The translations under genes and the position numbers were made by a program. Source: Eubacteriales bacterium (GTDB taxonomy: Bacteria > Bacillota > Clostridia > Lachnospirales > Lachnospiraceae). From it: 64,000 nucleotides of DNA. The notes beneath the pieces were generated by a model. The model was not told the DNA's origin. It saw only the letters and a list, made by a program, of their open reading frames with translations, and searched no databases. The stretch's first letter is position 1; each line of letters opens with the position of its first letter. This document shows, in pieces, positions 6,930 through 42,937 of the stretch. Location: positions 54,146-118,145 of the forward strand of contig JAUNHC010000016.1 of NCBI GenBank assembly GCA_030524175.1, given 5' to 3'.

Positions 6930-9440
6930 TTAAGGTTCGTCCAAGAGATGAAGCCGTCGGATTATCTGAATGGCTTCATCCATAGAGCCGGCATCCAGTT
7001 TTCTGTAGATCAGCTCTATGTGGGAGCGGACAGTAGAAAACTGAACACCCAGTTCCTCCGCAATTTTGCGGTAGCTGTAGCCCTGGCACATGAGTCTGGC
7101 AACTTTCTTTTGCTTCTGGGTAAGCTTTATTTCCGGTTCCTTTCTCTCATTTTTAGTAATGGTGCTGCAGCTATCCTGTTCTGCAGCGCCTATGTACAGC
7201 TTTCTGACAAAGGTAGGCGAAAGCGGGCCTGTATAGTCACTGCGCATGGTCCAGTTTTTAAGGCTTGATAAAATATTTTTCAGATTGGCACCGTGGCTGA
7301 TAAAGGCCTGTTCATACCCTATAGGCTGGGCGGTCAATACTGCTTCCTCCAGACAGGACAGTGCCTGCTTATGGGATCCGCGTTTCTTTTTCCAATAAGA
7401 GACTGCAAGGAGAATCTCAGCCTCTATGATATCAGCAGTTCTTTTCATGGCTTTGCACATCTCAAGAAGTTTTTCCAGCAGGATAATGGAATGGCTGTAA
7501 TCTTCCAGGACAATGTAAGCTTCGGCTGTGGTGAAATGTCCGTACAGCCTGTAGAAATCCAAGGGGCCATACACCTCAGTCCCTCTGGATTCAAGCCATC
7601 TGCGGGCAGCTTCGGTGTCGCCGGATCCCATCTGGTTTCTGCACACTGCGGCATCAAAATTGAACTGAAGATAGAGTGCCTTATCCTTGTCGATCATTTT
7701 TTGGATATCTTTCTGGATCAAGGCTTCCTGTTCCGGCTGTTTCATGGCGTGAGTCACAGCCAGCAGCAACATCATAGCGCAGAAATTTGATTCCGGCGCA
7801 AAGCCGTCCTGCAATTCAGTGACTGCACAGACTGCCAGTTCCTGGGCACGCTGCATATTTCCCTGTTCATAATAAAGCCCTCCGCGGATACAGTCCAGCA
7901 CCATGGTGCATTCACTTCCCAGAAGAGGCCCGAGTATCTGCCCAAGGCTCATGACGCTTTCATCAATATCCCCTGGCAGCAGTTCTGAAAAATCTCTGTA
8001 AGATTTGTGATAGAAGGGAAGATACAGGGTGGCTGAACCGCGCACGCCCTGGAACATGCCGGAGAATTGTGCTTCGGAAGCGGCTTTTGCAATTTCTTTT
8101 AAAGTGATACGGAAATCCATGGAGTACAGAAAGAAGATATTGTGTGCCAGTTCAGGATTCCGTTCTGCAATCTTAGGATAATTCCGGTAATAATTGTCCG
8201 CATAAATCTTGAAATCTTCAATTTGTCCTTCATTGCGGGCGGTGAAGGCCATCATAAAATACAGATGAGGATATCTTACCAATATGTTTTCGTCAAGGGT
8301 ACTGCGGACAGCAAGCATGACCTGTTCAGCATCAAATCCGGCCCTGTCCATTTCCTCCAGCAGATCAAAGCAGCGGGCTATATGCTCATAGTCTTTGATA
8401 TAAGAAAATCTTTCCACTGCATGATAAAAATCTTTATGCGCCAGATACCATTTTCCGGACTTCTGAATCTGGCCTTCACGGTATTCCGGGGGCATATCAA
8501 GAAACAGCTTTCTCAGAAATTCCCGGAACAGTCTGTGAAACCTGTAAGTGTGTCCCTCTTGTTTGTATAAAAACGCACCTTTTGTCACCAGTTCTTCAAG
8601 AAATCCAAGGCTGTCTTTTTCTCCTGTCAGCGCGCAGCAGATTTCTTCTGACAACTCTTCTTCTATACATGTCCCAAGCATAAATTTCTTAATGCGGTCA
8701 TCCCATATTTCCCACACCTGGGTTTTCAAAAAACTTTCCAGCCAGTGAGGCGACAGGTTTTTATCCGGCATATGACTGGCGGAAAGGAGCAGGGCGTTAA
8801 TTCCGATAGGCCAGCCTTCCGTAAGCCGGAGAATCTCATCGGCCTCCGCGGGGGTTATGGCAAGGCTTTTATTTTTGTACAATTCACAGATTTCCCTGTT
8901 ATCAAAAAGAAGCTGCTCCTGGGGAATAAATTGAATCTGATTTTTCAGAACCAGCCCGCTGAAGGCTTCCGGAAGTGAACTTCTGCTCAGAATGCATATT
9001 CTTATCCCTGAGGGAAGGCGAAGGATAAAATCCTTCAGGAGTTTTTGCGCAGAAAGATCTGTCAAATAGTGAAGGTCATCTATGACGAGATTAGCCGTTA
9101 AGTTTCCGGGCAGGGTTATGGCAGCCCTCATAAGAAATTCCACGGGGGCTTTGGTGAAGCCGGGATGTCTTGTGTATGCAGTTACGGTTTCCGGGAATTC
9201 CTCTGTGCACATAGCCTCCAAGGCTTTTTTCAGCTTGCAGCATATATCTGCCGGTGTATTGTCGTATTCATCTATGGTGATCATCCCGGAGGGCCCTTTT
9301 CTGCTGTCCAGCCATTGTGCTGCAAATATTGTCTTGCCGTAACCGGCGGGAGCCTGTACGTACAGGATACGGCATTGGCCCATTGCTTCTGCCAAGTCTG
9401 TCAATCTGCTGCGATGAATCATAATATTAGATGATATCAC
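6930..9440 (-). CDS. LuxR-family transcriptional regulator, MalT-like (STAND ATPase)
   Basis: 836 residues. An N-terminal P-loop ('APAGYGKT', near residue 30) and a 'NLVIDDLHYL' Walker B mark a STAND/AAA-type signal-transduction ATPase. A long helical, TPR-like middle follows, and a C-terminal LuxR helix-turn-helix occupies about residues 765-830 ('LTQKQKKVARLMCQGYSYRKIA', then 'VRSHIELIYRKL', read in parts). Such proteins are ATP-dependent activators with a small inducer. The start is a GTG at 9440 with GGAGGT at 9446-9451. It converges on the aminotransferase (13-base gap) and is divergent from the ribokinase, so the ribokinase/nucleoside genes are a possible target (inference). Confidence 0.85.
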   Translation of the reverse strand: MISSNIMIHRSRLTDLAEAMGQCRILYVQAPAGYGKTIFAAQWLDSRKGPSGMITIDEYDNTPADICCKLKKALEAMCTEEFPETVTAYTRHPGFTKAPVEFLMRAAITLPGNLTANLVIDDLHYLTDLSAQKLLKDFILRLPSGIRICILSRSSLPEAFSGLVLKNQIQFIPQEQLLFDNREICELYKNKSLAITPAEADEILRLTEGWPIGINALLLSASHMPDKNLSPHWLESFLKTQVWEIWDDRIKKFMLGTCIEEELSEEICCALTGEKDSLGFLEELVTKGAFLYKQEGHTYRFHRLFREFLRKLFLDMPPEYREGQIQKSGKWYLAHKDFYHAVERFSYIKDYEHIARCFDLLEEMDRAGFDAEQVMLAVRSTLDENILVRYPHLYFMMAFTARNEGQIEDFKIYADNYYRNYPKIAERNPELAHNIFFLYSMDFRITLKEIAKAASEAQFSGMFQGVRGSATLYLPFYHKSYRDFSELLPGDIDESVMSLGQILGPLLGSECTMVLDCIRGGLYYEQGNMQRAQELAVCAVTELQDGFAPESNFCAMMLLLAVTHAMKQPEQEALIQKDIQKMIDKDKALYLQFNFDAAVCRNQMGSGDTEAARRWLESRGTEVYGPLDFYRLYGHFTTAEAYIVLEDYSHSIILLEKLLEMCKAMKRTADIIEAEILLAVSYWKKKRGSHKQALSCLEEAVLTAQPIGYEQAFISHGANLKNILSSLKNWTMRSDYTGPLSPTFVRKLYIGAAEQDSCSTITKNERKEPEIKLTQKQKKVARLMCQGYSYRKIAEELGVQFSTVRSHIELIYRKLDAGSMDEAIQIIRRLHLLDEP

Positions 9441-9818
9441 TGTATACCTCCATGGCTTACGAAATTTTGTCTATATCTTCCTCTTCAGGGCACTTATGTG
9501 TGATAGGACTGATTGAAACCCTGATGGATTCAGTACAGAATAATTTTATCATTCTTAGAGCGGCCAGTCAAATTTGCCGGAGCTTTTTTGTCAGATTGTG
9601 ATTGGTGTCACGGATTTTTCAGGGGGTAATAAGGTAGAATCATGGTAACTGTTCAGTACAGGACTGTGCATTTACTGCACAGTCCGTGCGAAAACGTTGA
9701 ACAGCCAAAAGCAAGCCCCATCGCCAAAGGCGATTTTCATGGGCTTGCGGCGTAACTGTTCATGGTTCTGAACAGTTACGAATCATGATATTACATTCTA
9801 CCATTTGGAGGTATCACT
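9441..9818. other. Divergent intergenic region between LuxR regulator and ribokinase
   Basis: A 378-base stretch with no credible gene. The left part holds the upstream region of the LuxR gene. The right part (9633-9802) is a compact hairpin-rich inverted-repeat element ending right at the ribosome binding site of the ribokinase (TGGAGGT). No clear sigma-A promoter for the ribokinase was found by eye. Confidence 0.7.
9633..9802. repeat. 170-bp inverted-repeat element with internal hairpins (MITE- or REP-like)
   Basis: The outer ends GGTAGAAT (9633-9640) and ATTCTACC (9795-9802) are inverted. Further in, CATG and GTAACTGTTCAG on the left (9641-9656) match the reverse complement of the right arm (9768-9787). 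Inside are three hairpins: GGACTGTGC with GCACAGTCC (9661-9685), GCAAGCCCCA with TGGGCTTGC (around 9711-9748), and CGTAACTGTTCA with TGAACAGTTACG (9751-9780). No open reading frame fits. Origin as a miniature mobile element, or function as RNA, is undecided. Confidence 0.6.
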
Positions 9819-10733
9819 ATGAAGATATTGAATTTTGGCTCTTTAAATATAGACTATGTTTATTCTGTAGATCATATTGTCCGGGGCGGAGAAACCATAC
9901 TTTCTACAAAGTCAGAAACTTTTTGCGGCGGCAAAGGATTAAACCAATCCATAGCCCTGGCCAGGGCAGGTATACAAGTATACCATGCAGGCCTTATCGG
10001 CCGGGAGGGACAGCTTCTCCTGGAGACATGTGCCAGATACGGGGTGGATACTACATATATCAGGGAACTCCCGGAAAAGGGAGGCCATACAATGATCCAG
10101 GTAGATTCGGACGGACAGAACAGTATCATACTTTATGGCGGGACGAATCAGATGCAGACACGGGAATATATCGATGAGGTTTTATCCCACTTTGAATCCG
10201 ATGATTTCCTGATCCTACAGAATGAAATAAATCTGCTTCATTATATCATTGATAAAGCATATGAGAGAGGGATGAAAATCGTATTAAATCCTTCACCTTT
10301 TGACAATAAGCTGAAGGCCTGTGATTTATCAAAAATATATTTATTTATGCTGAACGAAATCGAAGGGGAACAGTTTACAGGGTTTTCTGATGCAGAAGAA
10401 ATTCTGGAAAGCCTTGCAGGTAAATTTCCGGAGGCTAAATTTGTTCTGACTTTGGGAAGCAACGGTTCTGTGTACTATGACGGTAAAGTTAAGTTATATC
10501 AGGGGATTTTTCCTGTGGATGCAGTGGATACCACGGCAGCCGGGGATACCTTTACAGGTTTTTTCATGGCCTCTGTGATAGCGGGAAAAAGTGTTGAAGA
10601 AGCGTTGTGTACAGCTTCTAAGGCATCCTCAATAGCAGTGTCCAGGCCTGGTGCCTCAGTTTCTATTCCTTCAGCCTCAGAGGTGAGTGAAAGCCTTCAG
10701 GAGCAGAGAAGACTAAAAATAACATCATGGTGA
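9819..10733 (+). CDS. PfkB-family sugar kinase, probable ribokinase
   Basis: 304 residues, full length for RbsK. The N-terminus has 'GSLNIDYVY' and the substrate/Mg motif 'GGKGLNQSIALARAG'; the C-terminus has the anion-hole and catalytic motif 'DTTAAGDTFTG', the same form as in E. coli ribokinase. It should phosphorylate ribose (or a close pentose) at O5. TGGAGGT precedes the ATG. It lies about 200 bases upstream of exported nucleoside hydrolases and a ribose-type ABC importer, which fits ribose salvage from nucleosides. A second kinase domain for the same role exists in the LacI fusion at 17826-19745. Confidence 0.85.
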   Translation: MKILNFGSLNIDYVYSVDHIVRGGETILSTKSETFCGGKGLNQSIALARAGIQVYHAGLIGREGQLLLETCARYGVDTTYIRELPEKGGHTMIQVDSDGQNSIILYGGTNQMQTREYIDEVLSHFESDDFLILQNEINLLHYIIDKAYERGMKIVLNPSPFDNKLKACDLSKIYLFMLNEIEGEQFTGFSDAEEILESLAGKFPEAKFVLTLGSNGSVYYDGKVKLYQGIFPVDAVDTTAAGDTFTGFFMASVIAGKSVEEALCTASKASSIAVSRPGASVSIPSASEVSESLQEQRRLKITSW

Positions 10734-10932
10734 CAACTATCACAGATAATAGACATGTAAAGAATTATAATGACAATACTTAATGAGTTTGCAGGCGTGG
10801 ATTTAGAATCTATCCGGTAAACTTGTAATATTAAGACAATTTCAGAATATGAAATTTATGTGAGCAAGGGCGCCGGACTCAGATAGGAAGGTATTTCTGG
10901 AACTGTAAAAAACAAAAACCAGGAGGGATATG

Positions 10933-12132
10933 ATGAAGAAGCTATTAGCTATGGCTCTAACAGCCACTATGGTAGCTGCAATGGCAGCACCGGCAGCAGT
11001 ATATGCGGAAGGAACGTCAGAGGAAACTGCAGCAGAGGCAGCAGCGGACACGGCAGAAGAGACGCCGGCAGTAAAACGTGCAATTCTCGATACAGATATG
11101 GGATATTTGAACGATGATGCAATTGTAATGTTTATGCTGGCCCAGGCAGACAGCCTTGGGGAATGTGACTTCCTGGGAGTAAGCACTGTGGGCGGAAATT
11201 CCTGGGTGGCAAGCGGAACTACGGCGGCACTTCGCCAGCTTGAACTCATAGGACGGGAGGACATTCCTGTATACAGCGGATGTGATGTTCCTCTGCTGGG
11301 GTTCCGTAACATGAAGGCAGAAAGTGAACTTTGGGGTATGCCTGAGTACAGCGGTGCTTATTGGGACTGGGGATCAAGTGACTTCTGTGATGTGAATGAA
11401 CGACCTACGGATTATAAGAATCTCCCAAGTGAGCCGAAATACGGTTACGCCACGACAGAAGCACAGGATGAACATGCTGTTGATTTTATTATTGAACAGG
11501 TACATAAATATCCGGGCGAGGTTACGATTTTTGTAATTGGTGCAGGTACAAATATGGCCCTTGCAGTCCGGAAAGATCCAACAATTGTCGAAGACGCAGC
11601 CGGAGTTATTTATATGGGCGGTGCGGTTGATATTCCCGGAAATTCCAGCCCGTCTGCAGAATTTAACTGGTATTATGACCCGGAGGGTATAAGAGTATGT
11701 CTGAATTCAGCATGGAAGGATCAGCTGATCGTTCCCAATGATGTGGCAGAAGCTGTTTTCTATACAAAAGATATTTATGACAGGATTTCTGAAAAACAGG
11801 GGAATGAAATTTCCAAGCTGATCGTGGAAGGTCAAAAGGACAGGTTTACTGAGAATCCGGAAGCATCCAGTTTCGTCTGGGATGCCATTACCGCAGCTGT
11901 ATGGCTCCACCCGGAAATTGCAGCCGATATCCAGGAACGTTATGTGACAGTGGATACTAACTACGGCCCGAATTACGGACGAGTTGTAAGCTGGTGGAAT
12001 TCCCGCAACAGAGATGTACAGGCTGGTGAAGGAATGCCTTACGGTGTACAGAAATGCAACGTACTTTTTGATATTGACAGAGAAGCGTTCTGGAACTTCT
12101 ATGTGGATATTTTGACAACGACAGTAGAGTAA
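10933..12132 (+). CDS. Exported nucleoside hydrolase-like protein (copy 1)
   Basis: 399 residues from ATG 10933 (AGGAGGG at 10921-10927; the ATG at 10930 is too close). A signal peptide (cut near 'VYAEG') precedes an acidic linker and an inosine-uridine nucleoside hydrolase fold. The calcium/substrate aspartate motif reads DTDMGYLNDD instead of the usual DTDxGxDD, i.e. with two extra residues. Other family segments are 'EVTIFVIGAGTNMALA', 'GVIYMGGAVDIPGN' and 'AEFNWYYDPEG'. It would cleave nucleosides to base and ribose outside the membrane. It is 19 bases upstream of a paralogue and in line with the ribose importer. Confidence 0.85.
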   Translation: MKKLLAMALTATMVAAMAAPAAVYAEGTSEETAAEAAADTAEETPAVKRAILDTDMGYLNDDAIVMFMLAQADSLGECDFLGVSTVGGNSWVASGTTAALRQLELIGREDIPVYSGCDVPLLGFRNMKAESELWGMPEYSGAYWDWGSSDFCDVNERPTDYKNLPSEPKYGYATTEAQDEHAVDFIIEQVHKYPGEVTIFVIGAGTNMALAVRKDPTIVEDAAGVIYMGGAVDIPGNSSPSAEFNWYYDPEGIRVCLNSAWKDQLIVPNDVAEAVFYTKDIYDRISEKQGNEISKLIVEGQKDRFTENPEASSFVWDAITAAVWLHPEIAADIQERYVTVDTNYGPNYGRVVSWWNSRNRDVQAGEGMPYGVQKCNVLFDIDREAFWNFYVDILTTTVE

Positions 12133-12151
12133 AAGAAAAGGAGAATGACAG

Positions 12152-13294
12152 ATGAAGAAAAAAGTATTATCACTTGTATTAGCAGCAGGAATGGCAGGAA
12201 GTCTTTTATCACCTTTAACAGCATCAGCAGCATTAGAGGACTATGAAATAGCAACCACCGCAGAGTCTAATAAAGTGATTTTAGACTGTGATATGGGGTA
12301 TCTGGGAGATGATGCGTACTGTTTGTTTATCCTTGCACAGGCAGATAAAGCCGGCTGGCTTGACTTGCTGGGCGTAACCGCGGTAGGAGGAAATGAGATC
12401 GTATCCAGCGGTACCAATGCAATTCTTAATCAGCTGGAAGCTATAGAGAGAACAGACATTCCTGTTTATATGGGTACAGACGTGCCGATAATGGGATTCC
12501 GTGATCTGGCATTGGATCAGCCTGTAACAGGTGGATTCCAGTGGACCGGCGGATACCGTCAGCTTGATTCCTATGTGGAACCCCAGAAGTATCATGAGCT
12601 GGGCGACCTTGTGGATGAGTCCTGGGGATATTCCAAAACAGAAGCTCAGGCAGATATGAATGCAGTGGAATTCATGATCAAGTCTGTAAAAGAGAATCCC
12701 GGTGAGGTGACAGTGTTTGCTATCGGTTCTTGTACAAACGTTGCTTTAGCCTGCATGATGGATCCCACTTTTGCTGAAAATACAGCAGGTATCATCTACA
12801 TGGGCGGTGCAATTGATGTTCCCGGCAATGCAAATGCATGCGGCGAGTTCAACTGGTTTTATGATCCCGAGTCAGTTCAGATTTGTCTGAATAATGATTT
12901 TCCGTATCAGATCGTTGTACCTCATGATATCGCATCCAAGGTTCCCCTTGAAAAAGATGTATTTGATATGATGAAAGAAAAGAATAATACACCGATCACA
13001 CAGCTGTTTATGGACCGTGTATATCCTGATTATGAAGAGAATCCTACACAGTCACATTACTGCTGGGATGCTATCACTGCAGGAATCTTCCTTTGCCCGG
13101 ACCTTATTACAGAGACTGAGAACAGAGATCTTGCAATTGACTGCAACAGCACCAGCTACAGCTATGCAAATGCTGTGACATGGGAAAGCGGCAATGGACC
13201 TTACAACTCAAAGAATGTACAGATCGTGTTCAATATTGACAGAGATGCATTCTGGACATTTGTGACAGATCTTTATGGTACACAGTTCGAATAG
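12152..13294 (+). CDS. Exported nucleoside hydrolase-like protein (copy 2)
   Basis: 380 residues with a signal peptide (cut near 'ASAALE'), a tandem paralogue of the preceding gene. The metal-site motif is DCDMGYLGDD, again with two extra residues, and the threonine between the aspartates is replaced by cysteine. It shares 'EVTVFAIGSCTNVALA', 'GIIYMGGAIDVPGN' and 'GEFNWFYDPES' with copy 1. Retention of both copies and their divergence suggest different nucleoside preferences (inference). No cell-wall anchor or lipobox is visible, so the enzyme is released or held by other means. Confidence 0.85.
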   Translation: MKKKVLSLVLAAGMAGSLLSPLTASAALEDYEIATTAESNKVILDCDMGYLGDDAYCLFILAQADKAGWLDLLGVTAVGGNEIVSSGTNAILNQLEAIERTDIPVYMGTDVPIMGFRDLALDQPVTGGFQWTGGYRQLDSYVEPQKYHELGDLVDESWGYSKTEAQADMNAVEFMIKSVKENPGEVTVFAIGSCTNVALACMMDPTFAENTAGIIYMGGAIDVPGNANACGEFNWFYDPESVQICLNNDFPYQIVVPHDIASKVPLEKDVFDMMKEKNNTPITQLFMDRVYPDYEENPTQSHYCWDAITAGIFLCPDLITETENRDLAIDCNSTSYSYANAVTWESGNGPYNSKNVQIVFNIDRDAFWTFVTDLYGTQFE

Positions 13295-13367
13295 AAAACT
13301 AAGGGATGGGCTTACTCCCATCCCTGAATAAAGAAACAGTAAACGTGCACAGGAGGTAGAATGCTCT

Positions 13368-13943
13368 ATGAAGAAAAGACTGGTAATTATGCTCACCTTG
13401 GCAACGATGCTGGTGGGAACTTGTGTTACCGCAGGTGCAGCGGAAAAAGAGGCTGACAAAGCCGCAGTCCAGGAGACAGAAGCAGCAGATGAGGATGGCG
13501 GAAAAGCAGAGGACCGTAACTATGATCCCGAAGCCGGCACAGGATGGCTTGCGGCAGATTTGAATGAGGAGCCTGTAGAATTTGAGTTTGACAGTGCTGC
13601 AAAAGGTATGACAGGCACTACATATACATTTAAATCCGAAAACTTCACAATGACTTTCATGCTCAATAAATCATTGGAGGTCGGAACGGAGATGGACAAA
13701 AACGCAATCACACAGATTGAGGTTGTAAGCTCAGACAAAGCCTCTGTGGGATACTATTTTGTGAAAAAATCTCCGGGACAGGATGTAGACAGCACAGTTA
13801 CATTAGAGAAATCAGAGGACGGACTGGTACAGGGAACCTTCACAGTTACAGTACCTACAGCCGAGAGATATGTAGGCGACAACAAGCCCGGCATACTCGA
13901 ACAACTAGTATTCACCGAAGGCGAATTCTGCTTTCATGAATAA
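13368..13943 (+). CDS. Small exported protein of unknown function
   Basis: 191 residues. A signal peptide is followed by a charged, glutamate- and alanine-rich linker (residues about 25-60) and a predicted beta-rich domain of about 120 residues ending 'EGEFCFHE'. I do not recognise the family. AGGAGG at 13352-13357 supports the ATG. It sits between nucleoside hydrolase 2 and the ribose-binding protein, all in one direction with short gaps, so it is probably part of the same uptake system, for example a wall-associated binding or assembly factor. That role is inferred from position only. Confidence 0.6.
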   Translation: MKKRLVIMLTLATMLVGTCVTAGAAEKEADKAAVQETEAADEDGGKAEDRNYDPEAGTGWLAADLNEEPVEFEFDSAAKGMTGTTYTFKSENFTMTFMLNKSLEVGTEMDKNAITQIEVVSSDKASVGYYFVKKSPGQDVDSTVTLEKSEDGLVQGTFTVTVPTAERYVGDNKPGILEQLVFTEGEFCFHE

Positions 13944-14043
13944 AAAACAGCTGAGCTGAAGAGCGAAGCTGTTTCCAACAAGCCAGCTGAGCCGAAGGTG
14001 AAGCTAAAGACTTTATAACAACGAAAATCAGGAGGAAAATGAA

Positions 14044-15120
14044 ATGAAAAAAATGATGGTAGGAACAGCGTTGGCACTTATTGCATCTATGAGTATGAGT
14101 ATGACTGCATTTGCAGCAGAGGATCTTCCGAGTGCTGATGTAGCAGAGCAGGGTTATGATTTTTATAAGGATGCAGTTTCTTATAATGATCTGAGAGAAA
14201 AACTTGGGGTAGTACCTAAAATTGAAGATGAGATCACAATCGGTTTTGCTACAAAGACTTTTGAAAATGAGTTCTGGCGTATGGAAAAAGAAGGCGCTGA
14301 GGCAGCTGCAAAAACATTCCAGGATGCAGGCTATAAGCTTACAGTTGACGTGCGCGGTGCACAGACTGAGACAGACGAAGAAGGCCAGCTGACACTTCTT
14401 ATGGATATGGTTAATAAGAAATATGACGGAATTCTGATTTCCGGTATTTCAGAAGCAAACCTTGTACCAGGCATGGAGGCTGCTATTGAAGCCGGCATCG
14501 ACATGACAACAGTTATGGATGCATTTACACCTTATGCAACAACAACAGTAGGCGCATGGCATTATCAGGCAGGTGTTCAGGGCGCTGAGTGGATCTACAA
14601 CAAGATTGGTGAAGAAGGAAAAGTTGCTTGTATCACAGGCCTTTCACAGGCAACAGCAGCTCAGGCACGTACACAGGGCTTCAATGACTTTTACGCTGAC
14701 AAGGATAAAATTGAAGTGGTAGCAGTACAGAACGGTGACTGGGACCGCCAGAAAGCTTATGACATTACAGAGACACTGCTTCAGCAGTATCCTGACCTTG
14801 CCGGAATCTACTGCAACAATGATACTATGGCAATGGGCGCTCTCGAGGCAGTTGTGGCAGCAGACAGTGAGTGTGTGATCGTAGGAACAGACGGAACAAG
14901 TGAAGCAACCGAGTCTATCAAAGCCGGCGAACTTGATGCAACTGTAGACTTCTTCCCGAACAAAATGGCAGAAATCGCTGTTGAAATGCAGATCCGTAAA
15001 CTGGCAGGCGAGGAACTTCCTAAGGTTATTTATGCTCCGCAGAGCATCCGTGACGGCGAAAATGTAGACAAATCCTTTGAAGAAATCTTTGGATATGACT
15101 ACAGCCCGGTTTTTGAATAA
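14044..15120 (+). CDS. Ribose/monosaccharide ABC transporter substrate-binding protein
   Basis: 358 residues. A signal peptide (cut near 'AFAAED') is followed by a type I periplasmic-binding fold of the RbsB/LacI-like class: 'ITIGFATKTFENEFW', 'GILISGISEANL', 'GIYCNNDTMAMGAL', and 'VIVGTDGTSEA' with 'LDATVDFFP'. It binds a sugar (ribose expected by context) for the RbsA-RbsC importer encoded next. There is no lipobox cysteine, unusual for a Gram-positive binding protein. AGGAGG stands about 8 bases before the ATG. Confidence 0.88.
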   Translation: MKKMMVGTALALIASMSMSMTAFAAEDLPSADVAEQGYDFYKDAVSYNDLREKLGVVPKIEDEITIGFATKTFENEFWRMEKEGAEAAAKTFQDAGYKLTVDVRGAQTETDEEGQLTLLMDMVNKKYDGILISGISEANLVPGMEAAIEAGIDMTTVMDAFTPYATTTVGAWHYQAGVQGAEWIYNKIGEEGKVACITGLSQATAAQARTQGFNDFYADKDKIEVVAVQNGDWDRQKAYDITETLLQQYPDLAGIYCNNDTMAMGALEAVVAADSECVIVGTDGTSEATESIKAGELDATVDFFPNKMAEIAVEMQIRKLAGEELPKVIYAPQSIRDGENVDKSFEEIFGYDYSPVFE

Positions 15121-15252
15121 TTTTAATCTCATTATCTGGAGATTATGAGCAAGTAGCGAAGGGGATCATAAATATCCGCTTTGGCTGAAAGCAGGGGGCG
15201 GTATGGTAGCCGCCCCCAAGTTTTTTCTGAACTTCAAACGGAGGGTGTATCT

Positions 15253-16749
15253 ATGGATAAACACATCGAATTTGAGCATATTGTTAAAACCTTTCCGGGT
15301 CAGAAAGCTCTGGACGATGTCAGCTTTTCAATACGCAAGGGAGAGATCCATGCGATCATTGGAGAAAACGGAGCAGGAAAGAGTACGCTGCTGAACATAC
15401 TGCACGGTGTTTTTCCGGCAACATCAGGAGAAATAAAAATTGCAGGAAAGGCGGTAAAATTTTCAAGTATAGCAGACGCCATCAATTTTGGTATTGTAAA
15501 GGTTCATCAGGAGATTGTAAGCATCCCGGAGATGACAGTGGCAGAGAATCTCTTTATGGGTAAAGAGCCGGGACGTTTTGGAATCGTGGACAAACAGAAG
15601 ATGAACAAAGACACCGAAGAACTCTTAAAGCGTCTTAAATGTGATATCCGTCCTACGGATAAAATGGGCGATCTTTCAACAGGCCAGAAGCAGATGATTT
15701 CCATCGCAAAGGCTTTGGAGGTTAATGCCAGTATCATATCTTTTGATGAGCCCACTTCATCGCTGAGCGATAAGGAGGTTGAGACTTTATTCGGAATTAT
15801 TGAAGATTTAAAGAATAAGGGAATTACTATTTTATACATAAGCCATAAAATGAACGAAATTTTCAGGATGTGTGACCGGTCAACCGTACTTCGGGACGGA
15901 AAATTCATTAAGACGATTGAGATGGATAAAACTACCCGCGATGAGGTGATACAGGCAATGGTAGGACGGGATATCTCACTTTTTGCTAAACGTACCATGC
16001 CCTGCCAGAAGAAAGGTGACGCACCGGTGCTTCAGGTAGAAGGTTTGTGCGGAGAGCGGTTCCGTGATATCAGCTTTGACTTGTATCCGGGAGAAATCCT
16101 TGGATTTTTTGGGTTGGTAGGAGCTGGGCGGACAGAGGTTATGCGTGCTATTTTTGGAGCAGATTCCTATGGCAAAGGAACTGTACGTCTCAAAGGGCAG
16201 GAAATTCACTGTAAATCTCCCTATGACGCCATAGAGAGAGGAATAGCGCTGATCTCTGAGAACCGTAAGGAAGAAGGAGTTCTGCCAAACTTTGATAATA
16301 TGGATAATATAGCTCTGGCCAGCTTGAAAAAATATATGTCCGGAATGGTGATAAACAACGGTAAAAAGATTAAAAACGCCAAAGACAAAGGATCACAGGT
16401 AGGATTAAAACCAAATGATCCGTCTTTTATGACGGTAAGTCTTTCCGGAGGTAACGCACAGAAAGTAATTTTGGCAAGATGGATGTCAACAGACGCATAT
16501 GTAATGATTTTCGATGAACCTACGAAAGGGATTGATATCGGTGCCAAAGCAGATATTTATCTCTTAATGGAAAAAATGGCTGCCGCAGGACTTGGAATTA
16601 TTATGGTTTCGTCAGAATTGACAGAAGTTATGGGAATGAGTGACCGTATCCTGGTAATGAGCGACGGTGCCATTACCGGAGACCTTTCAAAGAGTGAATT
16701 TTCTGAGGAAAATATTCTGAATTATACAGTGGAGGAGAGTGTGTCATGA
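15253..16749 (+). CDS. Ribose-type ABC transporter ATP-binding protein (RbsA-like)
   Basis: 498 residues with two fused nucleotide-binding domains. ATG 15253 is chosen over 15181 because GGAGGG at 15240-15245 precedes it and the protein then starts like RbsA. The first domain has 'GENGAGKST' and 'LSTGQKQM'; the second has 'GLVGAGRTE' with the degenerate Walker A usual for CUT2 transporters, then 'LSGGNAQKV' and 'IFDEPTKGIDIG'. It energises ribose uptake through the permease encoded next, whose ATG overlaps this stop (ATGA). Confidence 0.92.
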   Translation: MDKHIEFEHIVKTFPGQKALDDVSFSIRKGEIHAIIGENGAGKSTLLNILHGVFPATSGEIKIAGKAVKFSSIADAINFGIVKVHQEIVSIPEMTVAENLFMGKEPGRFGIVDKQKMNKDTEELLKRLKCDIRPTDKMGDLSTGQKQMISIAKALEVNASIISFDEPTSSLSDKEVETLFGIIEDLKNKGITILYISHKMNEIFRMCDRSTVLRDGKFIKTIEMDKTTRDEVIQAMVGRDISLFAKRTMPCQKKGDAPVLQVEGLCGERFRDISFDLYPGEILGFFGLVGAGRTEVMRAIFGADSYGKGTVRLKGQEIHCKSPYDAIERGIALISENRKEEGVLPNFDNMDNIALASLKKYMSGMVINNGKKIKNAKDKGSQVGLKPNDPSFMTVSLSGGNAQKVILARWMSTDAYVMIFDEPTKGIDIGAKADIYLLMEKMAAAGLGIIMVSSELTEVMGMSDRILVMSDGAITGDLSKSEFSEENILNYTVEESVS

Positions 16750-17711
16750 ATGCTATTTACAAAAAATACCGCAGAGAATGGAGTACATTGATCGCGCTGT
16801 TCATTACGATCATCCTGTTCAGTGTACTGGAACATTCCTATTTGTCCGCAACAAATATTGCGACAATTGTTACACAGTCTGTCACATATGGTCTGATGGG
16901 AATTGGTATGACCTGTGTCATCATCACAGGAGGGATTGACCTTTCCGTTGGTTCGTCACTGGCGCTGCTGGCTTGTGTCGGTGCCCAGCTTGCCAAAGCG
17001 GGGATGCCCATACCTGTATGGATCGTTGTTTGTCTTGCTCTCGGATTTCTTATGGGAGTTGTCAATGGAGTTCTTGTAGGTGTCATGGGACTTCAGCCGT
17101 TTATTGCAACTATGGGTACCATGCAGGTGTTCAGAGGTATTGCCTACATTATCACCGGAGGTTTCCCGGTACTGAACGTACCCAGGGAATACAGGAATGT
17201 ATTTAACTTTAAGATAACATCTGTTATTACTTTTTCTGTAGTTGTATTTTTCATTTTCGCAATCATCATTACCTTTGTTCTGAAGAAAATGAGAATCGGT
17301 ACTTATGCATATGCAATCGGCGGAAATGAGGACGCTGCCAGACTGTCTGGCGTACGTGTGAAAAGGACAAAAGCATTATTGTATGGAATCGGAATGCTGG
17401 GAACAACCCTTGCAGCCCTTATTATGATCGGAAGACTGGGTACAGGCGATCCGTCCACTGGTCAGGGATATGAAATGGATGCCATCGCAGCAGCAGCGAT
17501 CGGCGGTACATCAATGGCCGGCGGCCGTGGTAATATTTTCGGTACTGTTATCGGAGCTGTTCTTTTCTCTGCTTTGAAGGTAGGCCTTGTGGTTATGGGT
17601 GTTGATACATTCTATCAGTACATTGTTACCGGTATCGTAATTGTGATAGCAGCTTACATAGAAATTGTCCAGGGAAATATGCTGTCCAAACAGAAAGAGA
17701 AGAGTAAATAA
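16746..17711 (+). CDS. Ribose-type ABC transporter permease (RbsC-like)
   Basis: 321 residues, about eight to ten hydrophobic segments. It carries CUT2-permease signatures: 'GGIDLSVGSSLAL' near residue 60, 'GLQPFIATMGTM', and 'GGTSMAGGRGNIFGTVIGA' near the C-terminus. It forms the membrane channel of the importer with the upstream ATPase, with which it overlaps by 4 bases. A strong terminator follows at 17765-17794. Confidence 0.92.
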   Translation: MNAIYKKYRREWSTLIALFITIILFSVLEHSYLSATNIATIVTQSVTYGLMGIGMTCVIITGGIDLSVGSSLALLACVGAQLAKAGMPIPVWIVVCLALGFLMGVVNGVLVGVMGLQPFIATMGTMQVFRGIAYIITGGFPVLNVPREYRNVFNFKITSVITFSVVVFFIFAIIITFVLKKMRIGTYAYAIGGNEDAARLSGVRVKRTKALLYGIGMLGTTLAALIMIGRLGTGDPSTGQGYEMDAIAAAAIGGTSMAGGRGNIFGTVIGAVLFSALKVGLVVMGVDTFYQYIVTGIVIVIAAYIEIVQGNMLSKQKEKSK

Positions 17712-17764
17712 AACAGAGCGGCAGGATTGCCGCTGCTGGATATCTTCATTTTGATCAATATATG

Positions 17765-17794
17765 GGGGCTGTCAGAAATGACAGCCCCTTTTTT
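17765..17794 (+). terminator. Terminator of the nucleoside/ribose operon
   Basis: GGGGCTGTCA, GAAA tetraloop, TGACAGCCCC, then six T. It lies between the convergent permease and LacI-kinase genes. Confidence 0.9.
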
Positions 17795-17825
17795 CGTCGT
17801 GAATCACTCACAAAACAGTTACAGG

Positions 17826-19745
17826 TCAGCTTTTGGAAGAATCGGGCCTGAGAAGATAAGGCTTGTTTTTGGTGATATAAACTTCAAGGCTGTTATGATC
17901 AATGAGTGCGGAGGATACGCCTTGTCTGGAAACGCAGAAGCCAGCGGCGATCATTGCAATCTGGATAGCCTTTTCCAGACTGTAGCCTTCGTACAGATAA
18001 GAGGCGAGAGCCGATATGAATGCATCGGCACCTCCGGTAGTGTCAACTGCGCTCCAGTGGGAAGCGGAGAAATACTGCATGGTATCTTTTGTTTTCAGGT
18101 AGCAGCCTTCATGTCCCAGAGTTATGATGACTGTGGGAATACCCCGCCTGAAAAAATAATCGGCCTGTTGTTCCACAGAAGCATATTCAGGACAGAGAAC
18201 AGAGGCTTCTTTTCTGTTGGGGATCAGGATATCAATTGTTTCGTATAATTCTTCCGGCATTTTCTCCAGAACGGTAGGCTTAAAGATGGTGGTAACATTG
18301 TTTTCCTTTGCGATCCTTGCAGTAGCGATCACTGTTTCCAGCGGAATTTCGCTTGAAATGAGACAAAAGCAGGCATTTCGGAAAAGATGGCTGCTGTTTT
18401 CTATATCTGCCGGTACCAGTTCATCATTTGCCCCTCCGAGAATGGTTATGGCACTTTCACCGTCACTTTTTGTGTAAATAAAAGCTGTACCAGTCTGATT
18501 GTTCTTGTTTCGCAAAATACCTTGCGTAGAAACGTTTTCCTTTTCCAGGGCATTAAGTACAAAAGTACCGTCAATATCATTTCCCACTGCACAGATAAGA
18601 CTTACCGGATGGCCCAGTTTGGCAATGCCGATTGCCTGATTGGCTCCTTTACCTCCAATGGAAGTGGCTGAATTGTGGATTTTTAAGGTATTTCCCAGTT
18701 GAGGCATCATACTCACATTAAAGGTATTATCCTTATGGATACTGCCCACGGAAATAAACATTTTCTTCTTCATATATGAGGGCTGGCTGATGCTCTTTTC
18801 ATGGTTAAGCTCCCAGGAAGGTGAAAATTGATAGGAGGGATCCCCTTCCAGTGCCTTTTCACAAATCTTTATGAACTCACTGCATACGTGGTGCCCGAAT
18901 TCTTCATACGGTATGGTTACACTGGATACAGGCGGATGTGAGGAAACATCGTAGCACCCGCCCCTCAGGCTGATGATTGAAAAGTCAGAAGGAATAAAGT
19001 AACGCTGCTTGTTCAATGTCTCATACAGGGAGAGGGCATTGTCAAAGTGTGTACTTACGGCGCCGGTAATATTATACTGAAGCATTTTAGGAATAAAGGA
19101 ATCATCGCAGGTATAAAAAATCATATCGTCAGAATAGGGGAGCTGATTGTTGTAGAGACATTTCCGGAGGCCCTTCACAAACGGTATGGAACGGATGCTG
19201 CCTTTTTTCAGCAGGCAGGCAATGTTTGTGTGTTTTTTATCTATTAATTTCTGTGTCAGGGTATATCCCAGGCTGGCGTAGTCGATCTCATAGGATGGGT
19301 ACTGGAGAGGGCTGTTGATGAAACAGAAGGGAATCATATACTTGGTCAAATCCTGGCTTCGTTCATAGCTGTTGTCGGATATGGGTTCCCAGATAACCCC
19401 GTCCACGTTATTTTTACAGAAAATTGTGATATTTTTTGCTTCACGCACGCAGTCTCCCTGGCTTTCCAGAAGCAAAACTCCGTAACCATGTTCCTGGGCA
19501 GTCTCCAGAATACTGTTTAACAGCAGGCTGGATTTTACAGTGGACCGAAGAAGGACACCCAGAAGAAATTTCTTTGGGCCTAAGGTGTTTTTGACAGCTC
19601 CGTATGGTGTGAAATTGTATTCTTTTACCAGTTGGAGGACTCTTGCCCGCGTATTGGGATTAACGTGCTCATCCTTTCCATTGATGATTTTTGATACAGT
19701 GGCGATGGATACGCCGGCCATTTTGGCTATATCTGTTATGGTCAT
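17826..19745 (-). CDS. LacI-family regulator fused to a ribokinase-like kinase
   Basis: 639 residues, about the sum of a LacI repressor and a ribokinase. Residues 1-55 are a LacI helix-turn-helix ('TITDIAKMAGVSIATVSKI'), residues about 60-315 a periplasmic-binding-like sensor domain, and from Met325 a complete PfkB kinase begins ('FISVGSIHKDNTF', 'GGKGANQAIGIAKLG'). The C-terminal anion-hole motif reads DTTGGADAF where DTTGAGDAF is usual; the catalytic Asp is kept. It converges on the ribose importer operon, its probable target. The fusion could couple repression to ribose or ribose-5-phosphate. No stop or frameshift separates the halves, so the fusion is real in this sequence. Confidence 0.88.
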   Translation of the reverse strand: MTITDIAKMAGVSIATVSKIINGKDEHVNPNTRARVLQLVKEYNFTPYGAVKNTLGPKKFLLGVLLRSTVKSSLLLNSILETAQEHGYGVLLLESQGDCVREAKNITIFCKNNVDGVIWEPISDNSYERSQDLTKYMIPFCFINSPLQYPSYEIDYASLGYTLTQKLIDKKHTNIACLLKKGSIRSIPFVKGLRKCLYNNQLPYSDDMIFYTCDDSFIPKMLQYNITGAVSTHFDNALSLYETLNKQRYFIPSDFSIISLRGGCYDVSSHPPVSSVTIPYEEFGHHVCSEFIKICEKALEGDPSYQFSPSWELNHEKSISQPSYMKKKMFISVGSIHKDNTFNVSMMPQLGNTLKIHNSATSIGGKGANQAIGIAKLGHPVSLICAVGNDIDGTFVLNALEKENVSTQGILRNKNNQTGTAFIYTKSDGESAITILGGANDELVPADIENSSHLFRNACFCLISSEIPLETVIATARIAKENNVTTIFKPTVLEKMPEELYETIDILIPNRKEASVLCPEYASVEQQADYFFRRGIPTVIITLGHEGCYLKTKDTMQYFSASHWSAVDTTGGADAFISALASYLYEGYSLEKAIQIAMIAAGFCVSRQGVSSALIDHNSLEVYITKNKPYLLRPDSSKS

Positions 19746-19917: not shown

Positions 19918-20625
19918 TCAGCTTACCATCCATACCAAATCCTTTACATTATCATTATTGTACGCCAGCATTTGAATACTTTTGCGTTTGATTTTAATAA
20001 TGTTTTCTTCCTCTAATTTTTTGAGAAGTCTGGAAATCACTTCTCTGGATGACGCCAGCTCGTCAGCAAGCTGTTCATGTGTCAATGGTATGATATCGGT
20101 TTGATTCAGAAGGCAATATTCGCAAAGTTTCTTTCTGAGCCGTTCCTTCAGGGATAAGAAGCTCAGGTCGTTAATAAGCTCCAGCAGTTTGGAAACTATT
20201 TTCATTGAGCACTGAGTCTGCCACTTTCTTACACTGGGGCATTCATTATACATACGGATACTCAACTGTTCAGGAATGTAACACAACTCTGTTTCACCCA
20301 CGCACCTTGCTTCAATGGTGTAAAACAGTGAATCCAGACATCCTTTCGGAAATATAAAGCCTGAATTGTCTACAGTGATTTTTAAAAAGACAATAGTTTT
20401 CCCTTCCATATCCCGCATGATGAAATGAAGCTCTCCCTTCAACAGGGTCCATATCTTGGGGACGCTGAAAAATTCTTCAATATTAATGGTCTCACAGTCA
20501 TCGAATTTGCAGACAACCATTCTGTCCTTTACCTCTGCTTTTGTTTCCATTTTAAGGTCATTTAAATGGCGGCTTAATTTTCTGCAACTGTCAAAATTTT
20601 CTGCATTGATTATATGCTTTTTCAT
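19918..20625 (-). CDS. Crp/Fnr-family transcriptional regulator
   Basis: 235 residues. Residues about 20-130 form a cyclic-nucleotide-binding-type beta barrel, and a Crp winged helix lies at about 170-215 ('LTHEQLADELASSREVISRLLKKL'). The canonical cAMP-binding residues are not obvious, so the effector is unknown. The long upstream region is shared with the divergent hexitol PTS operon, which could be a target (inference). Promoter TTGACA-18-TATTAT is at 20795-20824, giving a leader of about 160 bases. Confidence 0.85.
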   Translation of the reverse strand: MKKHIINAENFDSCRKLSRHLNDLKMETKAEVKDRMVVCKFDDCETINIEEFFSVPKIWTLLKGELHFIMRDMEGKTIVFLKITVDNSGFIFPKGCLDSLFYTIEARCVGETELCYIPEQLSIRMYNECPSVRKWQTQCSMKIVSKLLELINDLSFLSLKERLRKKLCEYCLLNQTDIIPLTHEQLADELASSREVISRLLKKLEEENIIKIKRKSIQMLAYNNDNVKDLVWMVS

Positions 20626-41356: not shown

Positions 41357-42802
41357 TTATTCATAAAGTTTAATTGCATCAATGCGTACAATGCTGTCTG
41401 TACTGTTCGTATTTTTTTCTTCAGAAATTACCAGTTTTAGGGTATGTTTTCCAGGCTCTAATTCCCTGGCAGAATATAGACATTTACTACCAACCCGCTT
41501 TTCTGCATAGGTATCAATAACAGAAACCTCCTGTCCATCTAGCTGCACTGACAGCATACCTTGGTCTGCGTCTACACCGCCATAAAGATCAAATCCTACT
41601 CCTTCAAAATCCAGTGTCATATACGCACCTGGCTGTCCGGCATAGTTTACCAGCTGATCATTCTTCCATACGCCCCAGGTCTCGCCGTTGGCTCCATAAC
41701 GCATAATTCTGCCGTTTTTATCTTCAATGCACACAACCTTTTCCTCGTTGGGATTGTTTTTCTTGGCAGAAATCATTATTTCGTTCAACCTTGCTTCCAC
41801 TTGGGTTACATCTGCTTTGGCTACAAGAAATGCCCGTGCTCCAGTCTTTTCATTTTTTTCAAAGGTGTCTTTTCCATCTTCTAAGACAGAAACATCGCCT
41901 CGTTCCATTGACCAATAATCCTGTAGCCCTTCTACGGCGTAGAGCACTGCAGAAAGATCCCAGCTCCACCGTGTTCCAAGGCCTGTATCATCTGAAAGAT
42001 ACAGATCATAGCTTAAACGTACCGGATCATCTTGGGCCATCTCGTACCTGCGTTCACCTGTATCCAGGTTGATCCCAATCTCAGAACCGCTGAACATGAT
42101 TGGGGCCGGACACTTATTTACCATCAGTTGTGCTGCAGCAGGATCACACATAAAGTTATATTCTGCGGAGTCAAAATCCTGAAAGTTTCCTCCCATGCAG
42201 CTTACAAGTTTTACCTTTTGCCGAACTAATTCTATACCATTCAGATCACTGTACTCATCCGGCTGTGAATTTAGGAGTTCCGTCAGGTTGGTAAGAAAGC
42301 CTACAGAAACAATTGTCACACTGCCATCAGGCTGAGAGGCCAGTACCTCACGGTATATATCCACAGCATCCCGCGCATCATTGCCATCCCGCAAGGTGGT
42401 TTGATATTTCATGGTTACTGGTTTGCAGTAGGTGTAGCCTTCTGGGGCTACTTCGGAATCGCCTTTGTAGGTTCCCACAGGGATGTCCGGACGACCATAA
42501 TAAGTATTAATTGCCTCCGCACAGGAAACACTATAAAGACATGAACTGTCAGCTACCACTGCAAGCAAATTTGCCTTACCCTGATCTGCATAGGCGTGAA
42601 GCATGGCAAGTGCTCCGGCATCATCCACGTCAGCAGCAAGATCTGTATCGTAAATTATATTAGCTACTTCCTGGCCTGGTTCAGGCCATGCATGTTCATA
42701 CTGTACATATGACGATTGTCCTTGTGCTGAAACTGTTCCTGCAGTCATTCCAAATACTGCAGCCGTTCCGATTACCATCATTACAAAATTTTTTTTCTTC
42801 AT
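41357..42802 (-). CDS. Exported nucleoside hydrolase-like protein with C-terminal extension (copy 3)
   Basis: 481 residues. A signal peptide (cut near 'VSAQG') precedes a nucleoside hydrolase domain with the metal motif DTDLAADVDD, again longer than the classical DTDxGxDD, and 'VTIVSVGFLTNLTELL' and 'CMGGNF'. From about residue 365 a beta-rich module follows, resembling a galactose-binding-like or sugar-binding domain ('YMTLDFEGVGFDLYGG', 'LEPGKHTLKLVIS'). It is distant from the ribose locus and lies between an IS relic and an integrase relic, so it may be acquired. It would release ribose from nucleosides outside the cell. Confidence 0.8.
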   Translation of the reverse strand: MKKKNFVMMVIGTAAVFGMTAGTVSAQGQSSYVQYEHAWPEPGQEVANIIYDTDLAADVDDAGALAMLHAYADQGKANLLAVVADSSCLYSVSCAEAINTYYGRPDIPVGTYKGDSEVAPEGYTYCKPVTMKYQTTLRDGNDARDAVDIYREVLASQPDGSVTIVSVGFLTNLTELLNSQPDEYSDLNGIELVRQKVKLVSCMGGNFQDFDSAEYNFMCDPAAAQLMVNKCPAPIMFSGSEIGINLDTGERRYEMAQDDPVRLSYDLYLSDDTGLGTRWSWDLSAVLYAVEGLQDYWSMERGDVSVLEDGKDTFEKNEKTGARAFLVAKADVTQVEARLNEIMISAKKNNPNEEKVVCIEDKNGRIMRYGANGETWGVWKNDQLVNYAGQPGAYMTLDFEGVGFDLYGGVDADQGMLSVQLDGQEVSVIDTYAEKRVGSKCLYSARELEPGKHTLKLVISEEKNTNSTDSIVRIDAIKLYE

Positions 42803-42859: not shown

Positions 42860-42937
42860 ATCAAATAAATAATATCCTTTCTTTCCTTTCTTTTCAGTGA
42901 GCTTAGTCACACGTCTAGGGAGAGGGAGGGAACATTT

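What the first reader, a model, noticed from the sequence alone, without database searches (positions are those of the whole stretch)
9819..19745. Complete extracellular nucleoside-to-ribose route in one locus
Two exported nucleoside hydrolases, a small exported protein, a ribose-type ABC importer, a ribokinase and a LacI-ribokinase regulator lie together. Known nucleoside hydrolases in bacteria are mostly cytoplasmic and follow nucleoside import. Here cleavage seems to come first, outside the cell, with only the ribose imported and the base left outside. This would be a distinct strategy for feeding on gut or host RNA-derived nucleosides.
Basis: partly seen in the sequence, partly recalled or inferred. 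Interest (0 to 1): 0.72.

Follow-up and report, generated by a model that had tools for sequence, protein, structure and literature searches.

The report
Secreted nucleoside hydrolase and ribose-uptake regulon
A bacterium, probably a gut Lachnospiraceae, carries a conserved operon that appears to cut nucleosides outside the cell with secreted enzymes and then import the freed sugar, and one shared DNA switch sits before the secreted nucleoside-cutting genes found in its genome.

Summary
Window 9819-19745 encodes a ribokinase, two exported nucleoside hydrolases (NHs), a small exported protein of no known family, a CUT2 sugar ABC importer, and a convergent LacI-ribokinase fusion. The same 8-gene order recurs in two other genomes at about 50-87% protein identity. 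All 17 aligned exported NHs keep the catalytic residues and carry Trp where RihB has His, as purine-specific NHs do.

LacI-ribokinase fusions elsewhere usually sit beside nucleoside genes (14 of 17 loci examined). Where the importer is nucleoside-type (Bmp) the hydrolases lack signal peptides; where it is this CUT2 importer they are exported. That supports "cut outside, import the sugar".

New here: a CRP-type palindrome, GTGA-N6-TCAC, precedes 10 of 10 exported-NH/RK units tested in two genomes, against 2 of 156 other genes (both share a target's intergenic region). A CRP-family gene lies beside the operon in all three genomes with such sites.

Not shown: substrate, sugar specificity (the binding pocket differs from RbsB and AlsB at two positions common to both), base left outside. 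Many exported NHs stand without a sugar importer nearby. The strategy has precedents (P. aeruginosa Nuh; B. theta Rus). New variant of a known kind.

The parts
9598..9611 (.). CRP-type palindrome GTGA-N6-TCAC upstream of RK (207 bp before the start; shared intergenic region with the divergent gene 6930-9440)
   Evidence: sites also upstream of RK in L036 and L037
9819..10733 (+). RK: stand-alone ribokinase-type PfkB kinase with N-D, GGKG-x-NQ, E and AAGD motifs
   Evidence: (TIGR02152 213.6 bits, below its 299.65 cut-off)
10730..10743 (.). CRP-type palindrome upstream of NH1 (186 bp before the start)
   Evidence: present in L036 and L037 with a different spacer
10930..12132 (+). NH1: exported nucleoside hydrolase, group-I-like fold with Trp317 in the position of the catalytic His
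12152..13294 (+). NH2: exported nucleoside hydrolase paralogue (44% identical to NH1)
13368..13943 (+). SEP: small exported protein, predicted beta-rich fold, no known family; found in 6 loci and in each directly after an NH2 orthologue
14044..15120 (+). SBP: CUT2 sugar-binding protein, signal peptide without lipobox; pocket closest to AlsB but with Met and Phe at two positions that RbsB and AlsB share
15194..15217 (+). GC-rich hairpin plus T run between SBP and ABC (possible attenuator giving more SBP than importer)
   Evidence: consensus scan only
15253..16749 (+). ABC: CUT2 ATPase
   Evidence: start inferred from L036/L037 orthologues
16746..17711 (+). PERM: CUT2 permease (best NCBIfam match ribose permease, 224.8 bits, below its cut-off of 398)
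17764..17789 (+). terminator-like hairpin between the convergent operon and LacI-RK gene
   Evidence: consensus scan only
17826..19745 (-). LacI-RK: LacI regulator fused to a ribokinase domain (GSIHKD and DTTGGAD motifs differ from the stand-alone ribokinases compared)
19918..20625 (-). CRP/FNR-family regulator with a CRP-like recognition helix (SREVISR); candidate reader of the palindromes
41357..42802 (-). NH481: further exported NH-superfamily protein, member of the same putative regulon
42897..42910 (.). CRP-type palindrome upstream of NH481

Best explanation
The operon is a 'cleave first, import the sugar' nucleoside-scavenging system. NH1 and NH2 are exported and cut N-ribosides, most likely purine nucleosides, outside the membrane. 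The CUT2 ABC importer takes up the freed sugar, most likely ribose, and RK phosphorylates it to ribose-5-phosphate. The LacI-ribokinase fusion senses the incoming sugar and controls the genes. A CRP-family regulator next door sets a wider regulon of exported NHs through GTGA-N6-TCAC sites. Shown by sequence: gene content, conservation of order, signal peptides (by inspection), intact NH catalytic set, CUT2 transporter type, association of the fused regulator with nucleoside genes, the shared palindrome and its co-occurrence with the CRP gene. Inferred: substrate, sugar identity, direction of regulation, binding of the CRP protein to the sites, the role of SEP.
Against: SBP pocket: D89 of RbsB/AlsB aligns with Met (a one-residue shift would put Asp there) and Q235 with Phe, so ribose is not assured (pocket positions recalled). 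RK, NHs, SBP, ABC and PERM score below the equivalog cut-offs of NCBIfam. Exported NHs also stand without a CUT2 importer alongside: C23 (L030), L035, L040-L042, L043, L109, L110 and NH481, so the coupling to sugar import is not general. Export without lipobox or a wall anchor that I could see would lose NHs and SBP to the medium in a monoderm. 3 of 17 LacI-RK loci lack nucleoside genes, and four others have CUT1- or apparently ECF-type transporters instead of Bmp. No LacI operator was found (strict screen). The genomes with the palindrome are few (3) and related; orthologous sites are not independent and one of the ten is an identical tandem copy. The targets were named after the pattern was seen.
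Confidence: 0.66

Rival explanations
1. The exported NHs act on other N-ribosides (nicotinamide riboside, modified tRNA nucleosides, plant cytokinin ribosides) and the importer takes ribose from these; canonical nucleosides go through the Bmp/NH-inside route that the same genome has.
For: The subfamily has a long divergent insertion (residues about 120-170 of NH1); a nicotinate phosphoribosyltransferase lies divergently beside RK in 1XD42-54; the genome has Bmp hits (4 strong, 1 weak) and an NH without signal peptide beside one.
Against: Five exported NH paralogues in one genome fit a bulk nutrient better than a rare vitamin (inference); the NAPRTase neighbour is seen in one genome only.
Confidence: 0.2
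2. The ABC importer is for another sugar or sugar derivative and sits with the NHs only because both answer to the same regulator; ribose enters by another route.
For: SBP's best solved relatives are allose-binding proteins and its pocket lacks D89 and Q235 that RbsB and AlsB share; a search of the genome with SBP gave 51 matches, itself and possibly LacI-type sensors included, so other ribose binders are possible.
Against: RK, ribokinase-fused LacI and NHs are in the same conserved block with the importer; importers beside this regulator elsewhere are of nucleoside type in 8 of 17 loci.
Confidence: 0.2
3. The purpose is the base or removal of a signalling nucleoside (adenosine, inosine) near the host, with sugar uptake secondary.
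For: Four PF00860 base-permease hits in the genome; exported NHs without anchor act at a distance; several exported NHs have no sugar importer nearby.
Against: None of the four PF00860 hits lies on the contigs with exported NHs (C95, C23, C13); ribose-handling genes do lie in the operon.
Confidence: 0.13

Closest known systems
Bacteroides thetaiotaomicron Rus locus (BT2803-2809, Glowacki et al. 2020)
   Same: Gut bacterium; one locus for ribose utilisation; [quoted passage not shown] that the locus encodes a nucleoside hydrolase and two ribokinases is recalled)
   Different: SusCD-type Gram-negative system with its own regulator RusR (SusCD part recalled); here a CUT2 ABC importer, LacI-RK fusion and CRP-type sites in a presumed monoderm
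Pseudomonas aeruginosa Nuh
   Same: NH outside the cytoplasmic membrane (periplasmic), releases ribose and base from adenosine and inosine (PMC5437708, section 7 read)
   Different: Quorum-sensing controlled; that paper argues that adenine rather than ribose is what the cell is after and that ribose uptake is impaired
E. coli rbsDACBK-R and rihB-nupX-yeiI/yeiL
   Same: rbs: CUT2 importer + ribokinase + LacI regulator. rihB region: NH, putative nucleoside transporter, a PfkB kinase with an N-terminal extension (an HTH, recalled) and regulator YeiL side by side
   Different: rbs has no NH; RihB starts at its catalytic strand and is paired with a nucleoside transporter; YeiI has a short N-terminal part, not a LacI; the YeiL helix differs from the window's CRP-family protein
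Clostridial Bmp nucleoside-ABC + NH + LacI-RK loci (G057, G191, G315, G042, G083, G081)
   Same: Same fused regulator (30-46% identity), RK-like kinases in some (44-55%), NH
   Different: NHs without signal peptide and a nucleoside importer: import first, cut inside

Membership tests
Nucleoside hydrolase (PF01156) | Family profile match above the gathering score | tested here: met
   NH1 209.1 and NH2 187.4 bits against cut-off 34.2
Nucleoside hydrolase (PF01156) | Ca-binding and ribose-binding residues (DxD..DD, N, T, E-x-N, last D) | tested here: met
   invariant in 17 of 17 aligned sequences; aligned to RihB; residue roles partly recalled
Nucleoside hydrolase (PF01156) | N-ribohydrolase activity | not testable with these tools
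   needs assay
Group I (IU-NH) nucleoside hydrolases | His immediately before the last Ca-binding Asp | tested here: not met
   Trp in 17 of 17; definition from passages of PMC8910321
Group II (IAG-NH, purine) nucleoside hydrolases | Trp before the last Asp | tested here: met
   Trp317-Asp318
Group II (IAG-NH, purine) nucleoside hydrolases | second Trp in the beta3-alpha3 loop, and group-II fold | tested here: inconclusive
Ribokinase (RbsK) | Sugar and ATP motifs (G-S-x-N-x-D, GGKG-x-NQ, E, D-T-T-A-A-G-D) | tested here: met
   RK has all, aligned with E. coli RbsK; roles recalled
Ribokinase (RbsK) | NCBIfam equivalog cut-off TIGR02152 | tested here: not met
   RK 213.6 bits and fusion 257.5 bits against 299.65; so called ribokinase-type
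RbsB ribose-binding protein | Ribose pocket residues | tested here: not met
   N13, F15, R141, N190, D215 kept; N64 to S, D89 to M, R90 to D, Q235 to F, F16/F164/F214 to W/W/T (residue list recalled)
CUT2 ABC sugar importer | PF13407 + double ABC ATPase + PF02653 in one operon | tested here: met
CRP-controlled regulon | GTGA-N6-TCAC sites upstream and a CRP-family protein with an R-E-x-x-x-R recognition helix | tested here: met
   (E. coli consensus and helix reading recalled)
CRP-controlled regulon | binding of the protein to the sites | not testable with these tools
   needs gel shift or footprint

The most novel reading that the evidence does not exclude
A small lineage of gut Lachnospiraceae-type bacteria runs a dedicated, CRP-family-controlled regulon whose targets are exported nucleoside hydrolases: five NH-superfamily paralogues in four places of this genome, plus the ribose uptake operon. 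It converts luminal purine nucleosides to bases and captures the ribose, with a LacI-kinase fusion as sugar or kinase-substrate sensor. It evolved from the common 'import nucleoside, cut inside' clostridial loci by swapping both enzyme location and importer type while keeping the regulator-kinase.
Probability: 0.4. Interest if true: 0.68.

Novelty: new variant of a known kind. Interest (0 to 1): 0.52.

Why it matters
Gut nucleosides such as adenosine and inosine are both food and host signals (general knowledge). A secreted-enzyme route in a Gram-positive-type gut bacterium would change luminal nucleosides outside the cell and share bases with neighbours. Enzyme location paired with importer type, across loci with the same regulator, gives a testable case of how an import-first pathway can turn into a cleave-first one. 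The palindrome gives a handle for finding the regulon and testing its regulator.

Tried and rejected
LacI operator: a screen for inverted repeats (9+9, at least 8 of 9 paired) and shared 16-mers upstream of RK, NH1, SBP and LacI-RK genes gave no common operator. The screen is strict: it also missed the CRP-type site as a palindrome. Several 16-mers were shared between orthologues (some A/T-rich or promoter-like, before LacI-RK); the one between RK and NH1 in all three genomes contained GTGA-N6-TCAC and was followed up.

Other full GTGA-N6-TCAC matches in fetched loci that are not before exported NHs: L034:6780, L042:12499 and 13611, L065:13655, L109:13390 lie inside my ORFs; L041:4781 lies outside any ORF and 5 kb from the NH.

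YeiL as closest relative of the window's CRP-family gene: rejected, weak alignment and different helix.

Fused kinase as inactive: considered because 16 of 18 fused proteins lack the last Gly of GAGD and 3 of 18 have His for Asn. Not concluded, as the catalytic Asp is kept; one stand-alone row (the kinase of L038) was read in a wrong frame by me and dropped.

Signal-peptide heuristic: scores of exported and other NHs overlap and its cleavage test passes most sequences, so I rely on inspection. Two of the Bmp-locus NHs (L066:1996, L107:919) have longer N-termini by my start choice, without a hydrophobic stretch.

Alignment A1 holds 17 of 23 exported-NH places seen; left out were an identical tandem copy, a truncated copy and one full NH2 in L036, one in L038 masked by my ORF choice, and two fragments at contig ends. 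NH481-type proteins are not in A1.

Neighbourhoods: 17 of 19 LacI-RK loci were examined; G065 (3.2 kb contig) and G205 were not. In some searches only the 3-5 best candidates per genome were scored and thresholds were strict (1e-60, 1e-100), so '2 of 392' and '18 of 392' count genomes with a strong match, the own genome included.

Literature: searches (listings with abstract starts; all 10 allowed) showed no paper on an exported NH in Lachnospiraceae or on LacI-ribokinase fusions with NHs; the library holds open-licence papers only and most hits were not opened. Seen: passages of PMC12596196, passages of PMC8910321, passages and section 7 of PMC5437708. Glowacki 2020 was not held.
Full report
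Observation. Order on the plus strand: RK 9819-10733, NH1 10930-12132, NH2 12152-13294, SEP 13368-13943, SBP 14044-15120, ABC from about 15253 to 16749, PERM 16746-17711. The LacI-ribokinase gene, 17826-19745, is convergent. A GC-rich hairpin with T run lies between SBP and ABC (15194-15217) and another at the operon end (17764-17789) (consensus scan only; 18 such sites found in 10.8 kb against 8.5 in shuffles). The listed start of ABC at 15181 lies upstream of the first hairpin, and orthologues start at the ATG, so 15253 is preferred.

Conservation and spread. A scan of genome contigs with NH1 gave 9 loci. Two genomes keep the whole block: L036/L095 (Bacterium 1XD42-54; G394, the same contig by length and content) and L037 (titled uncultured Lachnospiraceae). 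Protein identities to the window are 71-74% (RK), 81-85% (NH1), 77-79% (NH2), 50-56% (SEP), 84-87% (SBP, ABC, PERM) and 60-62% (LacI-RK). L036 has a tandem duplication of RK-NH1-NH2 with a truncated NH2 copy followed by a second RK stretch. L035, L038 and L043 keep NH clusters with SEP in other surroundings. L039 keeps SBP-ABC-PERM, a separate LacI gene, RK and NH1. L040-L042 have a lone exported NH. In the order, 2 of 392 sampled genomes (own and G394) have a strong match to this NH subfamily and 18 of 392 to the LacI-RK fusion. In an earlier set of 61 genomes, none of 36 of the same genus had more than a weak general NH match (best E 1.5e-18). So the exported system is rare and patchy; transfer between lineages or repeated loss is possible. 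The window's taxon is not told; 'Lachnospiraceae' is inferred from record titles of the relatives.

Importer. SBP is CUT2-type (PF13407). Its best solved relatives are allose-binding proteins (E 3e-38 on); proteins titled ribose-binding follow from E 1e-29. Of the recalled RbsB pocket positions N13, F15, R141, N190 and D215 are kept, three follow AlsB (W, W, T), and N64, D89, R90 and Q235 differ from both in window, L037 and G394 alike. The ligand is probably a monosaccharide but not proved to be ribose. SBP has no lipobox; of ten other binding proteins of this genome checked, seven have signal peptides without one, one (L051) has a lipobox-like LWGC that my pattern missed, and two were unclear or truncated.

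Regulator-kinase. LacI-RK fusions were examined in 17 of 19 loci. NH-superfamily genes are beside 12 and Bmp nucleoside importers beside 8; 14 of 17 have one or both. Exceptions are G353, G381 and G150 (Pfam check of a subset). C86 and G384 have CUT1-type binding proteins (for Pfam), G388 and G416 apparently ECF-type genes. Six loci have Bmp plus NH, and there the NHs lack signal peptides; the window, G394 and L037 have the CUT2 importer, and there the NHs are exported. The own genome also holds the import-first type: C26 has Bmp ABC, an NH without signal peptide and a PfkB kinase (L064). This pairing of enzyme place with importer type is the strongest argument for 'cut outside, import sugar'. 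Against it, many exported NHs elsewhere stand without a CUT2 importer alongside (C23, L035, L040-L043, L109, L110, NH481). In the fused proteins 16 of 18 lack the last Gly of the GAGD motif and 3 of 18 have His for Asn in the sugar motif, unlike 5 of 5 stand-alone RKs compared. A sensing rather than catalytic role is possible.

Regulon. Comparing intergenic regions of the three orthologous operons pointed to GTGA-N6-TCAC between RK and NH1, the CRP-type palindrome (consensus recalled). The window holds three (0.68 expected; 4 of 100 shuffles reach 3): before RK, before NH1 and before another exported NH-superfamily gene, 41357-42802. In own-genome and G394 stretches it lies within 250 bp of 10 of 10 exported-NH or RK units and of 2 of 156 other genes, both of which share a target's intergenic region (Fisher p 2e-14). 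Leaving out the NH1 sites that suggested it, 7 of 7 against 2 of 156 remain (p 7e-11). Orthologous sites share ancestry, and the targets were named after the pattern was seen, so the p-values are a guide only. A stricter pattern over both genomes gave 22 hits at 21 places (5 for the reversed control) in the own genome and 8 at 7 places (0 control) in G394. By my ORF calls, own-genome hits outside genes are five: four precede exported NH or RK units and one a GntR gene; one more (L130) overlaps the first codons of an ORF of uncertain start. In G394 five of seven places precede RK, NH1 (two copies), the C7 NH, or, on C34, a gene that I first took as covering the site. Its likely start is 120 bp downstream and it is an exported NH-superfamily protein, 63% identical to 41357-42802. 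The four PF01156 genes of the own genome without signal peptides (C26, C92, C86, C33) lack the site in the stretches checked. The CRP-family gene beside LacI-RK has a CRP-like recognition helix (SREVISR against SRETVGR). Its orthologue is in 3 of 3 genomes with the sites; six other genomes with exported NHs have at best a 28% match, and the upstream stretches examined in them lack a full site (one has 7 of 8 bases, L035). Whether it activates or represses is unknown.

Compared with what is known. P. aeruginosa Nuh is periplasmic and serves growth on adenosine and inosine, but that paper argues for base rather than ribose use (PMC5437708). The B. theta Rus locus scavenges ribose, with RusT proposed to bring free ribose into the cytoplasm (PMC12596196, passages). 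NH activity on lumenal uridine by Drosophila gut flora is also on record (PMC8910321, passage). E. coli has rbs (importer, ribokinase, LacI regulator) and, elsewhere, rihB beside a putative nucleoside transporter, a PfkB kinase with an N-terminal extension and the regulator gene yeiL. So each part and the general strategy are known; the combination with CUT2 import, LacI-RK fusion and CRP-type sites was not seen in print in the searches (open-licence library only). Verdict: real, conserved, a new variant of a known kind, with substrate and sugar still to be tested.

Noticed in passing
window 41357-42802 (-): Exported NH-superfamily protein of 481 aa with a C-terminal extension and a CRP-type site at 42897-42910; in L035 its homologue (86% identical) follows SEP directly, and G394 has one (63%) on contig C34 with a weak CE2_N match in its tail.
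   Followed up: partly
L063 (own genome C86) and L096, L106: LacI-RK fusions beside a divergent NH-superfamily protein (DTDTYNEIDDQ motif in C86) and a CUT1 or apparently ECF-type transporter; at C86 a PF00860 base permease is also near: possibly another riboside pathway.
   Followed up: partly
L036 8775-15860 / L095: Tandem duplication of RK-NH1-NH2 in Bacterium 1XD42-54, with a truncated NH2 copy running into a second RK stretch.
   Followed up: no
window 14044-15120 and own loci L045-L047, L049, L060-L062: Several substrate-binding proteins of this genome have signal peptides without a lipobox, unusual for a monoderm; how they stay at the cell is unclear.
   Followed up: partly
L111 (own genome C49): A 647-aa protein joins a lipobox-like signal, a solute-binding-protein-like match and a 5'-nucleotidase C-terminal domain: an odd architecture.
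   Followed up: no
L095 17349-18824: Nicotinate phosphoribosyltransferase gene divergent from RK in 1XD42-54; a possible hint at nicotinamide riboside.
   Followed up: no
window 6930-9440 (-): MalT-like LuxR regulator divergent from RK and sharing its upstream region in the window; not beside RK in 1XD42-54.
   Followed up: no
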